Of a DNA stretch of 64,000 nt, positions 11,637-15,470 are shown in pieces. The notes below the pieces were generated by a model, which saw only the letters and a program-made list of their open reading frames with translations, was not told where the DNA came from and ran no database searches. Positions within the stretch are counted from its first letter, which is position 1, and each line of letters begins with the position of its first letter. A program made the position numbers and the translations under genes. The stretch spans positions 62,001-126,000 of the forward strand of contig NZ_UCNJ01000014.1 in assembly GCF_900473965.1 (NCBI RefSeq). Direction: 5' to 3'. This stretch comes from Synechococcus sp. UW179A. GTDB lineage: Bacteria; Cyanobacteriota; Cyanobacteriia; PCC-6307; Cyanobiaceae.

Positions 11637-11665
11637 CTCAACCGGGTATGACCCGGTTGAGTTTT
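11637..11665 (+). terminator. Rho-independent terminator after speD
   Basis: A perfect 11-bp stem, CTCAACCGGGT (11637-11647) and ACCCGGTTGAG (11651-11661), with a 3-nt loop and TTTT following on the plus strand. It starts 7 bp after the speD stop. The same bases encode the last codons and the stop of larE on the minus strand, where no T-run follows the hairpin. Confidence 0.85.
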
Positions 11666-12486
11666 CCACTCACCAACCCTTCCAAATCGAGGCTCACACT
11701 GGTGAAGCCAAGTTCGAGCATGACTCGAACCAATGAGTCTCTGAGCTCAGGAGCAAGTAGTTCGGCAAGCCGCTCCTGAGGAACCTCAATTCTGGCCGAC
11801 AGGCCCTGGGATCGAACTCTCACACGAGAGAAGCCCCGTTCGATCAACCAAGCTTCCGCACGACCAACCTGTTTCAGGCGGTCATGGCTGATGGCTTCTC
11901 CATAGGGAAACCGTGAGGCCAAACATGGCTGAGCAGGCTTATCCCACCAGGGAAATCCCAGCGCCTTGGACAGTCGTCTCACGCAGGACTTGTCGATCTG
12001 CAGATCCGCCAGTGGAGAGCCCACCCCTGCTTCACTAGCCGCCTGAAGGCCAGGCCGATGATCGCCGAGGTCATCGAGATTCACACCATCGAGGACCCTC
12101 GCACCTTCAGCAGCCTCAGCAATGGGAGCGAGATGGCTGTGCAGCTCCCGTTTGCAGGCATAGCAACGATCCGTGGGGTTGCTGCTGTAGGCGGGGTCGT
12201 CGAGCTCCCTGGTTTCCACTTCACGGTGCCGGATTCCCAGCCAGTGCGCCTGCTGACGCGCTTCAGCAAGTAGATGAGGAGCAAGCGAAGGCGACACGCC
12301 AGTAATGGCACACGCGCAGTCGCCAAGCTGTTCCTGGGCGATGGCAGCCACCAAGGTGCTATCAACCCCACCGGAGTAGGCCACGAACACGCGATCACAG
12401 CCCAGGATCCATTCTCGAAGGCTCTTCAGACGAAGCTCGTCCTCCACCGACAAAGATTCCAGCAGGCGCAAAGTCTCGAAAGCCAC
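11638..12486 (-). CDS. larE: LarE-type ATP-dependent sulfur transferase
   Basis: 282 residues. A PP-loop (FVAYSGGVDSTLVA) opens the protein, DRCYACKRELH lies near residue 105-115 and PCLASRFPYGEAIS near 180, matching LarE, which activates and thiolates the nicotinic-acid-derived pincer precursor of the lactate racemase nickel cofactor. In the characterised enzyme the cysteine in the CLASR motif is the sacrificial sulfur donor; a form with three cysteines carrying an Fe-S cluster is also known, and CxxC plus this cysteine would fit that. larA, larB and larC are not in the window, so the acceptor here may be something else. Divergent from the CobO-like gene with 60 bp between starts. Confidence 0.85.
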   Translation of the reverse strand: MAFETLRLLESLSVEDELRLKSLREWILGCDRVFVAYSGGVDSTLVAAIAQEQLGDCACAITGVSPSLAPHLLAEARQQAHWLGIRHREVETRELDDPAYSSNPTDRCYACKRELHSHLAPIAEAAEGARVLDGVNLDDLGDHRPGLQAASEAGVGSPLADLQIDKSCVRRLSKALGFPWWDKPAQPCLASRFPYGEAISHDRLKQVGRAEAWLIERGFSRVRVRSQGLSARIEVPQERLAELLAPELRDSLVRVMLELGFTSVSLDLEGLVSGKLNRVIPG

Positions 12487-12546
12487 TGCTGAAAATAGGA
12501 ATATCGTTATGCTCCGATCGTAAGAAGCGCCATCTAGAAATTGACG

Positions 12547-13743
12547 ATGGACGCAGTCCAGTCATCCGATAGCTCGAGCGGAACCCGACGCAACAGCAAG
12601 CCAGGCATCGGCATCGTCACAGCTGCAGACAGCCGTGAACGCAGCCTTGGCCAACTCCATGTCTACGACGGAGAGGGCAAAGGAAAAAGCCAAGCAGCGC
12701 TTGGAGTTGTGCTTCGCACGATTGGTCTTGGCATCTGCGAACAACGGAGAACCCGGGTTCTGCTGCTGCGATTCCTCAAAGGACCCGGACGGGCCTACGA
12801 CGAGGATGCAGCGATCGAAGCATTGCAGCAGGGTTTCCCCCATCTCATCGATCAGGTCCGTACTGGACGGGCCGACTATTTCAACGCTGACGAAGCCACC
12901 AAATTTGACCAACAGGAGGCGCAGAGAGGTTGGGACATCGCGCGAGGCGCGATTGCCAGCGCTCTGTATTCCGTTGTGGTTCTGGACGAACTGAACCCGG
13001 TGCTGGATCTCGGGCTACTCGACATCAATGATGTGGTGAAGACCCTCTCTGCTCGACCAGAGGGGATGGAAATCATCGTGACTGGACGCGCTGCGCCCCA
13101 ACCCTTGATTCAGATCGCCGATCTGCACTCTGAGATGCGCGCCCACAGGCGGATCGAGCACAAAGACAATTCGCTGATTCCATTCCCGTCACCGGGTGGA
13201 ATCGAGATCTACACCGGCGAAGGCAAGGGGAAATCCACAAGCGCCCTGGGCAAGGGTCTCCAGGCCATCGGCCGTGGCATTAGTCAGGACAAAAGCCATC
13301 GCGTGTTGATCCTGCAATGGCTTAAGGGAGGCAACGGCTACACCGAAGATGCTGCGATCGCCGCTCTGCGTGAGAGCTACCCGCACCTGGTGGACCACCT
13401 GCGTTCCGGACGGGACGCAATCGTTTGGCGCGGTCAACAGGAGCCGATCGACTACGTGGAGGCCGAACGTGCCTGGGAGATTGCCCGAGCGGCGATCGCC
13501 AGCGGCCTCTACAAAACCGTGATCCTGGACGAACTCAATCCCACTGTCGATTTAGAACTGCTGCCGGTCGAACCCATCGTGCAGGCCCTGGTGCGCAAGC
13601 CTTCCGAAACCGAGGTGATCATCACAGGCCGCTGTAAACACCCACCGGCCTACTTCGATCTAGCGAGTGTTCATTCGGAAATGGTTTGCCACAAGCACTA
13701 CGCAGAACAGGGCGTCGACCTCAAGCGTGGGGTTGACTATTGA
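12547..13743 (+). CDS. Tandem-duplicated CobO/BtuR-like P-loop ATPase
   Basis: 398 residues made of two similar halves about 180 residues apart. Each half has a P-loop (GEGKGKSQAALG, GEGKGKSTSALG), an EDAAI.AL...PHL helix, a GWDIARGAIAS or AWEIARAAIAS helix, an LDELNP Walker B and a final LHSEM or VHSEM motif. The family corresponds to CobA/CobO cob(I)alamin adenosyltransferases, which attach the 5'-deoxyadenosyl group to corrinoids. Both nucleotide sites look intact. The halves differ strongly in sequence, so the duplication is old. The ATG at 12547 is preferred over the TTG at 12541. Corrinoid adenosylation is the likeliest role, but a fused double protein may have another. Confidence 0.8.
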   Translation: MDAVQSSDSSSGTRRNSKPGIGIVTAADSRERSLGQLHVYDGEGKGKSQAALGVVLRTIGLGICEQRRTRVLLLRFLKGPGRAYDEDAAIEALQQGFPHLIDQVRTGRADYFNADEATKFDQQEAQRGWDIARGAIASALYSVVVLDELNPVLDLGLLDINDVVKTLSARPEGMEIIVTGRAAPQPLIQIADLHSEMRAHRRIEHKDNSLIPFPSPGGIEIYTGEGKGKSTSALGKGLQAIGRGISQDKSHRVLILQWLKGGNGYTEDAAIAALRESYPHLVDHLRSGRDAIVWRGQQEPIDYVEAERAWEIARAAIASGLYKTVILDELNPTVDLELLPVEPIVQALVRKPSETEVIITGRCKHPPAYFDLASVHSEMVCHKHYAEQGVDLKRGVDY

Positions 13744-13758
13744 CGCCCTCCTACAGCC

Positions 13759-14922
13759 TCAGTAACGGGGAACTCCAGGATCCACCTGCTGCGACCAGGC
13801 ATCGATCCCTCCAGAGACATTGGTGGCGTCGATTCCATGCTGCGATAGAAATTCGACCGCCCGCGCGGAACGTCCGCCCAGCTTGCAATGCACGTAGATC
13901 GGGCGATCGCCAGCAAGGCGGCGAATCTCGTCGATTGCCTCTCCATCCTCGATCCTTGGAAGCGGGATCAGTTGAGATCGAGGAATCACTGCCACATCTG
14001 CTTCAGAAGGATTGCGCACGTCAATCAGCACCAGCTCACCTCCGTCTTCCAACAATGCGCTGAGCTCCTTCACGGAAATGCTTCTCACGCTTGATGCTCC
14101 CTCAAAACAGCCGGAACCCTCGACGCTACAGAACGCCTCGTAGTCGACCAGGGCTGTGATAGGAGGGCGATGGGGTCGGCGCTGCAGACGGAGCTCACGG
14201 AAACGCATGGTCAGGCCATCCACAAGCAGCAGCCTTCCATCCAGAGATTCACCGATCCCTGCCAGCAACTTGATGGTTTCGGTCGCCTGGAGCAGCCCGA
14301 TCAATCCCGGCATCACCCCAATCACACCTCCATCAGCGCAGGAGGGAACAAGACCCGGAGGCGGAGGCTCTGGAACCAAATCGCGGTAATCAGGTGATTG
14401 AGGGCCCTGATTGAACACACTGACCTGGCCCTCAAAGCGCTGAACGGATCCATACACCCAGGGCTTGTTGAGCAAGGCGCAGACGTCGTTGATCAGATAG
14501 CGAGTGGGAAAGTTATCGGAACCATCCACCACCAAGTCATGATCTTCGATCAGCTCGATGGCATTTGTGGTTGTGAGCCGACAGGCATGCTGTTCAACCC
14601 GGCAATGGGAATTGAGATCCAGGATCCTCTGCGAAGCGGAGTCCGTCTTGAGCTGGCCTAGGCCACTTTCTGCATGGATCACCTGTCGCTGGAGGTTGGA
14701 GACTTCCACGTGGTCATCGTCAACGATGCCGATGCGACCAACACCAGCCGCCGCCAGATACATCAATAAAGGCGAGCCGAGCCCACCTGCCCCAACACAC
14801 AGCACCGATGCCGTTTTCAACCGCTGTTGGCCGATAGCCCCAAACTCCGGGAGTGTGAGGTGACGGGCGTAACGTCCTCGCTCCTGCGCACTCAGATCGG
14901 GATCTGGAGAGTGTTCCGTCAT
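13759..14922 (-). CDS. moeB: MoeB/ThiF-type E1-like adenylyltransferase with C-terminal rhodanese domain
   Basis: 387 residues. Residues about 15-250 are a ThiF/MoeB fold: GAGGLGSPLLMYLAAAGVG nucleotide loop, DDHVEVSNLQRQ, DGSDNFPTRYL and SCADGGVIGVMPG. Residues about 275-387 form a rhodanese domain with the active-site loop VHCKLGGRSA carrying the persulfide cysteine. Such proteins adenylate the C-terminal glycine of a ubiquitin-like sulfur carrier (MoaD or ThiS type) and deliver sulfur to it. The start overlaps the stop of the upstream JAMM peptidase by 4 bp, implying coupled synthesis. No beta-grasp carrier gene is adjacent, so the exact partner is unknown. Confidence 0.86.
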   Translation of the reverse strand: MTEHSPDPDLSAQERGRYARHLTLPEFGAIGQQRLKTASVLCVGAGGLGSPLLMYLAAAGVGRIGIVDDDHVEVSNLQRQVIHAESGLGQLKTDSASQRILDLNSHCRVEQHACRLTTTNAIELIEDHDLVVDGSDNFPTRYLINDVCALLNKPWVYGSVQRFEGQVSVFNQGPQSPDYRDLVPEPPPPGLVPSCADGGVIGVMPGLIGLLQATETIKLLAGIGESLDGRLLLVDGLTMRFRELRLQRRPHRPPITALVDYEAFCSVEGSGCFEGASSVRSISVKELSALLEDGGELVLIDVRNPSEADVAVIPRSQLIPLPRIEDGEAIDEIRRLAGDRPIYVHCKLGGRSARAVEFLSQHGIDATNVSGGIDAWSQQVDPGVPRY

Positions 14923-15470
14923 TGCAGCAGGAATGCGCCATCAGCACACGACTTCATAGTGTCTCCCACCGTTGCGTCGCTTTGGACAACGATTGAAAGA
15001 GCGCTGACAGACTTCCCGGGCACTCCCTCCTGACCGGGCCCTTGCAACCACCAGGCACGGACGCCGGCAGCTCCAGCATCAATGAGCACGACCCCCTCGC
15101 TGGCAGCCCATTGCCTGTCCATGGCGCTGGGCACCGGCTGGCCCCCAGGATGGGAGTGTGCACTGCCGAGAACCCGCCAACCTCTCTGACGGGACCACCG
15201 CTGGGCAGCGATTTGCTCACGAGGATCCAGGGCAAACCGTGATCGGCGCGAAGCAGAGACTGACGCTTGATCGCCATCTCCCGAGATCACATCGCTGACT
15301 CCGCCGAGACCAGGTCGCCAGACATTGCAGCAAGGCCATACACAGCGCACGTGCAGATCAGGTGCTGACTTCCCCAGCAGCAATGCGCAGCCCTCTTCCG
15401 GTGACACGGCCTTCAGTGAGGACCTGAGAATCATCAGACAATCGAGATCGATAAGGAGCCGGCATGGCAT
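14919..15470 (-). CDS. JAMM/Mov34-family metallopeptidase
   Basis: 183 residues with a complete JAMM zinc-protease signature: a glutamate in PEEGCALLLG near residue 26, then HSHPGGQPVPSAMD, which matches HxHP-x6-SxxD exactly. Bacterial members cut sulfur-carrier proteins after their Gly-Gly end or remove an adduct such as cysteine. The gene overlaps moeB-rhodanese by 4 bp. This is the known pairing of an E1-like enzyme with a JAB peptidase, as in CysO-type sulfur-carrier systems. The substrate is inferred only from this pairing. Confidence 0.85.
   Translation of the reverse strand: MPCRLLIDLDCLMILRSSLKAVSPEEGCALLLGKSAPDLHVRCVWPCCNVWRPGLGGVSDVISGDGDQASVSASRRSRFALDPREQIAAQRWSRQRGWRVLGSAHSHPGGQPVPSAMDRQWAASEGVVLIDAGAAGVRAWWLQGPGQEGVPGKSVSALSIVVQSDATVGDTMKSCADGAFLLQ

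What the first reader, a model, noticed from the sequence alone, without database searches (positions are those of the whole stretch)
14919..15470. JAMM peptidase and E1-rhodanese enzyme translated as a coupled pair
A complete JAMM motif protein overlaps by 4 bp a MoeB/ThiF-rhodanese protein. In known systems this pair processes and recharges ubiquitin-like sulfur carriers. No beta-grasp carrier gene is next to it, so the carrier must be encoded elsewhere or be a domain of another protein. This could be a dedicated sulfur-transfer route, perhaps for cysteine, molybdopterin or a modified tRNA base.
Basis: partly seen in the sequence, partly recalled or inferred. Interest (0 to 1): 0.55.

Follow-up and report, generated by a model that had tools for sequence, protein, structure and literature searches.

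The report
Protease that unlocks vitamin-B1 sulfur carrier
A marine Synechococcus carries a zinc-protease gene overlapping a sulfur-activating enzyme gene, and comparison with relatives suggests that the protease removes one surplus amino acid from the sulfur carrier used to make vitamin B1, a step that small-genome relatives (apparently Prochlorococcus) have lost together with the surplus amino acid.

Summary
In detail: an intact JAMM metalloprotease gene (14919-15470, minus strand) overlaps by 4 bp a MoeZ-type E1-rhodanese gene (13759-14922). Linkage, not the overlap, is conserved: in 108 of 109 picocyanobacterial genomes with a JAB match, the best match lies directly upstream of the E1. The pair was listed in 2006 as an uncharacterised cyanobacterial operon. 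New here is a candidate client. The genome encodes two detectable beta-grasp carriers: MoaD, ending in GG, and ThiS, ending in GGGS, beside a ThiD2-ThiE gene. ThiS therefore needs trimming before the E1 can use it. A prediction noted before the test held: 107 of 108 genomes with the linked JAMM have capped ThiS; all 39 readable ThiS from genomes without it end in GGG. In 20 JAMM-bearing genomes ThiS is the only carrier found, always capped. But the JAMM-less genomes are one genus. In other cyanobacterial families caps on ThiS (9 genomes) or a CysO-like carrier (17) were seen only with the JAMM, yet 80 of 89 readable JAMM-bearing genomes there have uncapped ThiS, so the JAMM has another job. 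Best reading: here the JAMM matures ThiS for thiamine synthesis. No biochemistry was done.

The parts
14919..15470 (-). JAMM/Prok-JAB metalloprotease gene, 183 aa, predicted to trim the C-terminal residue of ThiS
15393..15395 (-). codon of E26, predicted catalytic glutamate of the JAMM motif
   Evidence: invariant in 32 of 32 aligned JAMMs; role recalled from JAMM literature
15117..15158 (-). HSHP-x6-S-x2-D zinc-site motif, H105 to D118
   Evidence: H105, H107, S115, D118 in 81 of 81 aligned JAMMs
14919..14922 (-). ATGA overlap of JAMM stop and E1 start
   Evidence: the ATG form shared by 3 near relatives L466-L468, any 4-bp overlap in 5 of 48
13759..14922 (-). MoeZ/MoeB-type E1 with C-terminal rhodanese domain, 387 aa; predicted to adenylate and thiolate ThiS and MoaD
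   Evidence: no CxxC motif, so MoeZ-like
14176..14871 (-). ThiF adenylyltransferase domain
   Evidence: PF00899 residues 18-249
13789..14076 (-). rhodanese domain; loop Cys346 (CKLGGRS), codon at 13885-13887
   Evidence: PF00581 residues 283-378; loop

Best explanation
The pair is a maturation-and-recharging module whose main client in this organism is ThiS. ThiS is translated with one residue too many (..VGGGS), which blocks adenylation. The JAMM zinc protease removes the serine and exposes the glycine terminus; the MoeZ-type E1 encoded next to it adenylates that terminus and its rhodanese domain supplies persulfide sulfur, giving ThiS thiocarboxylate for thiazole (vitamin B1) synthesis. The same E1 presumably also charges MoaD, which needs no trimming. 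Shown here: the genes, the intact active-site residues, the capped ThiS, and the co-distribution. Inferred: the cleavage, its site, and the thiolation steps.
For: Two carriers found in the genome: MoaD ends TGG, ThiS ends VGGGS beside a ThiD2-ThiE gene. Prediction written, tested, corrected: with the moeB-linked JAMM, ThiS is capped in 107 of 108; without it, ThiS is exact in 39 of 39 readable (3 further genomes have no ThiS found). Where PF02597 finds a single carrier: 20 of 20 JAMM+ genomes capped, 33 of 33 readable JAMM- genomes exact, 1 without ThiS. The apparent exception G137 proved to be a phage-tail JAMM/NlpC protein. In G007 the gene order of the window is kept with only the JAMM missing (gene names other than the E1 read by eye). 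Outside this family a cap on ThiS occurs in 9 of 89 readable JAMM+ and 0 of 36 readable JAMM- genomes; caps on a CysO-like carrier in 17 JAMM+ genomes (15 near both JAMM and moeB) and in 0 of 31 JAMM- genomes read. The E1 is present in 149 of 150 genomes, including those with ThiS as only carrier found. Precedent: capped sulfur carriers need a protease such as QbsD, and loss of the JAMM PtmS1 stops thiocarboxylate product formation (PMC6006322 passages).
Against: The picocyanobacterial contrast is essentially one loss event (all 42 JAMM- genomes are genus g2), so the Fisher value is not an independent-sample test. At class level alone the ThiS association is weak (Fisher 0.058; 0.10 if the doubtful cap SGG is not counted), and 80 of 89 readable JAMM+ genomes there have uncapped ThiS, so ThiS trimming is neither universal nor shown to be ancestral for this JAMM. 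G086 keeps JAMM and E1 with uncapped ThiS. In G005 the E1 copy beside the JAMM is broken, though an intact copy lies elsewhere. The JAMM is not linked to thiS. No activity has been shown.
Confidence: 0.7

Rival explanations
1. The JAMM acts as a Mec+-type hydrolase in a CysO-dependent cysteine pathway, as in Mycobacterium, and the ThiS cap is incidental.
For: A CysO homologue (best PDB matches 4n6e and CysO 3dwg/3dwm) lies near JAMM and moeB in 15 genomes of families f4, f13 and f29; the E1 lacks CxxC and so resembles MoeZ, the type that charges CysO (PMC3227635 passages).
Against: No CysO-like gene at E 1e-12 in this genome or in 11 other family-f1 genomes of genera g1-g6 and g9; 2 of the 14 f1 genomes in that sample do have one. 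In this genome only ThiS and MoaD were found. In 20 JAMM+ genomes ThiS is the only carrier found.
Confidence: 0.07
2. The JAMM removes ThiS or MoaD from protein conjugates, as in archaeal SAMP systems (desampylase).
For: One of the two closest solved folds is P. furiosus JAMM1 with SAMP2 (Z 18.2); weak NCBIfam match to desampylase (42.6 bits, cut-off 130).
Against: Below the desampylase cut-off; conjugation was not tested; it does not by itself explain why the cap is absent where the JAMM is absent.
Confidence: 0.1
3. The association of JAMM and ThiS cap is historical coincidence: both were lost in the ancestor of one streamlined clade, and another protease trims ThiS.
For: One genus supplies all JAMM- picocyanobacteria; the cap codon is mostly TCC (91 of 107), which may partly be inertia; class-level association is not significant at 0.05.
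Confidence: 0.13

Closest known systems
QbsD/QbsE and PtmS1 with PtmS2/PtmS3 (protease activation of capped sulfur carriers for thiocarboxylate natural products)
   Same: A protease (JAMM family in PtmS1) exposes GG on a carrier that ends with one or two extra residues; an E1 then charges it (PMC6006322 passages).
   Different: Those serve secondary metabolites; here the capped carrier is ThiS of primary thiamine synthesis and it is not encoded beside the JAMM.
HcyD/HcyS/HcyF of Wolinella (Krishnamoorthy and Begley 2011; title seen in a reference list; the paper itself is not held; mechanism recalled)
   Same: Recalled: a JAMM removes one residue from a ThiS-like carrier before E1 charging.
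   Different: Recalled: homocysteine rather than thiazole product; dedicated operon.
Mec+/CysO/MoeZ of Mycobacterium
   Same: JAMM-type protease plus MoeZ-type E1 plus a carrier homologous to the capped carrier near this JAMM in families f4, f13 and f29.
   Different: Mec+ hydrolyses a CysO-cysteine adduct (PMC3227635 passages); CysO was not found in this genome.
Iyer et al. 2006 row 4b: cyanobacterial JAB plus E1-rhodanese operon
   Same: This is that operon (Prochlorococcus, Synechococcus and others listed; PMC1779556 passages).
   Different: Left uncharacterised there; the paper stated that thiamine and molybdenum-cofactor operons contain no JAB gene, whereas the data here tie the JAMM to ThiS.

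Membership tests
JAMM/MPN+ metalloprotease | E-xn-H-S/T-H-x7-S-x2-D motif | tested here: met
   motif as in the abstract of PMC300881 (search listing)
JAMM/MPN+ metalloprotease | JAMM fold | tested here: met
   Z 18.2, rmsd 1.8 over 129 residues to 5lda
JAMM/MPN+ metalloprotease | zinc-dependent peptidase activity | not testable with these tools
   no assay
MoeZ/MoeB-rhodanese E1 | ThiF domain plus C-terminal rhodanese with loop cysteine | tested here: met
MoeZ/MoeB-rhodanese E1 | MoeZ type: lacks the CxxC motifs of MoeB | tested here: met
   none in own protein; none in 79 of 85 relatives; definition from a PMC3227635 passage
JAMM-activated capped sulfur carrier (QbsD type) | carrier with residues beyond GG in the same genome | tested here: met
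   ThiS ends VGGGS
JAMM-activated capped sulfur carrier (QbsD type) | carrier gene clustered with the protease gene (usual, not strictly required: PtmS3 was inferred to work unlinked) | tested here: not met
   carriers on other contigs; a capped carrier near the JAMM only in families f4, f13, f29 among loci read
JAMM-activated capped sulfur carrier (QbsD type) | protease removes the cap | not testable with these tools
   inferred from co-distribution only
Mec+/CysO cysteine pathway | CysO carrier present | tested here: not met
   no match at E 1e-12 in own genome; only two PF02597 hits
Archaeal desampylase | NCBIfam desampylase score over cut-off | tested here: not met
   42.6 bits against 130

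The most novel reading that the evidence does not exclude
In most picocyanobacteria vitamin-B1 synthesis is gated by a zinc protease: ThiS is made as a locked precursor, the JAMM is the key, and the lock gives zinc- or protease-level control over thiazole synthesis. High-light-type Prochlorococcus deleted lock and key together during streamlining. This would be a JAMM protease acting in the thiamine pathway, whose operons the 2006 survey found free of JAB genes, and a clear case of a protease that first permits and then is required by a surplus residue.
Probability: 0.25. Interest if true: 0.75.

Novelty: new variant of a known kind. Interest (0 to 1): 0.5.

Why it matters
It gives a testable client to a cyanobacterial operon listed as uncharacterised in 2006, links a ubiquitin-system-type protease to thiamine synthesis in abundant marine phototrophs, and offers a natural with/without comparison between marine Synechococcus and high-light-type Prochlorococcus. 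It also warns that thiS genes annotated as functional may encode an inactive precursor.

Tried and rejected
MoaD as the trimmed client: it ends exactly in GG in this genome; MoaD termini in other genomes were not collected, so MoaD caps elsewhere are untested. CysO as client here: not found. G137 as a counter-example: its Prok-JAB hit is a phage-tail JAMM/NlpC protein. The exact ATGA overlap as a conserved sign of coupling: not conserved widely.

Rows dropped or chosen: only the best Prok-JAB match of each of 109 genomes was used; 6 second matches (in G131, G132, G139, G141, G142, G149) were left out. In one search G005 counts as linked although the E1 beside its JAMM is broken by two stops. 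In the class, JAMM presence was called at 58 bits or more to PF14464; 4 of the 39 genomes called JAMM- (G154, G240, G257, G274) carry weaker hits of 29-45 bits that pass Pfam's cut-off of 25 and were treated as other JAB proteins without further test. CysO-like ends were read at 80 loci: the 30 best matches, 30 JAMM- genomes that I picked and 20 stretches that I picked (19 of them JAMM+ class genomes and G086), so not a random sample; second copies in the same genome were not read. In one JAMM+ genome, G206, the CysO-like copy whose end (SIVPSIAGG) resembles the capped type stops at GG, near a contig end.

Literature: all 10 paper searches listed no paper whose title or abstract start links a JAMM to ThiS trimming in cyanobacteria. 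They cover only the open-licence library, and the term ThiS cannot be told from the word 'this', so they are weak evidence of absence. One named scan of genome contigs gave 14 loci.

Full report
OBSERVATION. The two genes are real. The minus-strand ORF 14919-15470 encodes a 183-aa Prok-JAB protein (E 1.7e-18) and 13759-14922 a 387-aa ThiF-rhodanese protein (9.3e-77 and 4.9e-14). They share ATGA at 14919-14922. E26, H105, H107, S115 and D118 are invariant in 32 aligned JAMM proteins; the four H/S/D positions are identical in 81 of 81. An AlphaFold2 model (mean pLDDT 86.0) matches P. furiosus JAMM1 bound to SAMP2 (5lda, Z 18.2, rmsd 1.8, 129 residues) and 2kks (Z 18.2) equally well. The E1 has the rhodanese loop CKLGGRS and no CxxC motif, hence MoeZ type. 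Its best sequence matches in the PDB include Uba4, MoeB and ThiF.

WHERE IT LIES. The genome held has 3.06 Mb in 35 contigs. The nearest named JAMM relatives are three marine Synechococcus single-cell genomes (79-81% identity); Synechococcus WH7803 has 56%. In 150 genomes of the order, 109 had a Prok-JAB match. In 108 of them the best match lies directly upstream of the E1 on the same strand (in G005 that E1 copy is broken and an intact one lies elsewhere); the 109th, G137, is a JAMM/NlpC protein in a phage-tail cluster. The 42 genomes without the moeB-linked JAMM all belong to one genus, g2, with about 1.5-1.7 Mb genomes. The E1 is present in 149 of 150 genomes at E 1e-30. In G007 the gene order of the window is kept with only the JAMM missing (gene names other than the E1 read by eye).

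THE CARRIER. At E up to 10 the window's genome has two PF02597 matches. MoaD, next to MoaE, ends ..PPFTGG. ThiS, 44 bp downstream of a ThiD2-ThiE fusion gene, ends ..IVTIVGGGS. A sulfur carrier must end in glycine to be adenylated (established chemistry), so this ThiS needs one residue removed. Before looking elsewhere I noted the prediction that the cap would track the JAMM.

TEST WITHIN THE ORDER. ThiS was found in 147 of 150 genomes and its end read in all 147. With G137 moved to the JAMM-less side, 107 of 108 JAMM+ genomes have residues beyond VGGG, and 39 of 39 JAMM- genomes with ThiS end at VGGG. Caps are one residue in 97 of 107; the first cap codon is serine in 100 of 107, with A, C, T, F, D and L also seen and longer caps such as SYS or DSP. 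The one exception, G086 (length as I recall for RCC307), keeps an intact JAMM and E1 with uncapped ThiS. Among genomes with a single PF02597 match (E 0.01 or better; that the single match is ThiS was seen for part of them, as the match list was cut), 20 of 20 JAMM+ are capped and 33 of 33 readable JAMM- are not. Fisher's test gives 6e-35, but the JAMM- genomes form one genus, so this is close to one evolutionary event.

TEST OUTSIDE THE FAMILY. In 131 genomes of other families in the class, 92 have a strong Prok-JAB hit (58 bits or more) and 39 do not, in 14 families. Of 89 readable JAMM+ genomes 9 have capped ThiS (families f12, f18, f24), of 36 readable JAMM- genomes none (Fisher 0.058, or 0.10 if the cap SGG, which itself ends in GG, is not counted). 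In f12 genus g58 and in f24 genera g71 and g85 capped and uncapped species occur side by side, all JAMM+ (genus labels), which fits a permissive role: the JAMM tolerates a surplus residue that would otherwise stop thiamine synthesis. But 80 of 89 JAMM+ genomes have uncapped ThiS, so the JAMM should have another job there. Of the 30 best class loci, 27 have moeB within 1.5 kb. In families f4, f13 and f29 a CysO homologue (CysO 3dwg E 7e-24) lies near both genes in 15 genomes, and between them in the five loci read in detail. Counting f33, where it is near moeB only, 17 of 17 such copies carry residues beyond GG. The other CysO-like copies whose ends were read stop at GG: 32 in JAMM+ (among them G206, whose copy resembles the capped type) and 31 of 31 in JAMM- genomes (80 loci in all, chosen as told under Tried and rejected). 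So caps on either carrier were seen only in genomes with the JAMM.

READING. I infer an older state with JAMM, a capped CysO-like carrier and the E1 in one cluster (families f4, f13, f29; their branching order was not tested here), and a client switch to ThiS in picocyanobacteria. The window's genome shows no CysO, so a mycobacterial-type cysteine route is unlikely here. The step order cap removal, adenylation, persulfide transfer is inferred from QbsD/PtmS1 and MoeZ work (PMC6006322 passages; PMC3227635 passages). A related observation is cleavage of mycobacterial MoaX between Gly82 and Ser83 by an unidentified protease (PMC4326299 passages). Uncapped CysO with a JAMM, as in 32 genomes, would fit a Mec+-like job, but CysO also occurs without the JAMM (30 of 30 genomes).

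WHAT IS KNOWN. Iyer et al. 2006 (PMC1779556; passages) list the cyanobacterial JAB plus E1-rhodanese pair as uncharacterised (row 4b) and state that thiamine and molybdenum-cofactor operons hold no JAB gene. In ten searches of the open-licence library I saw no paper connecting this JAMM with ThiS (calls listed under Tried and rejected, with their weakness). Hence a new variant of a known kind: JAMM activation of a capped carrier, with ThiS as client. No activity has been shown.

Noticed in passing
L212 2166-2867 (G137:C13): JAMM/NlpC tail protein with neighbouring tail-like genes in a Prochlorococcus-like genome: a phage or prophage contig, and a trap for Prok-JAB counts.
   Followed up: partly
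L217 and L218 (G005): The E1 gene beside the JAMM holds two in-frame stops, while a second intact E1 copy lies on another contig.
   Followed up: partly
L467 (Synechococcus AG-673-A03): The E1 reading frame runs on to 1124 aa, a fusion or an assembly error.
   Followed up: no
window 11638-12486: LarE-type sulfur transferase gene near the pair; a similar gene stands at the same place in G007 (by eye).
   Followed up: no
window 12541-13743: 400-aa protein with two CobA/CobO/BtuR stretches beside the E1 gene.
   Followed up: no
ThiS loci: The cap serine is coded by TCC in 91 of 100 serine cases, also in small Prochlorococcus-like genomes of genus g4; selection or inertia not tested.
   Followed up: no
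families f4, f13, f29, f33: All 17 genomes of these families in the sample hold two or three CysO-like genes, one of them in or near the JAMM/moeB cluster; what the others do is open.
   Followed up: no
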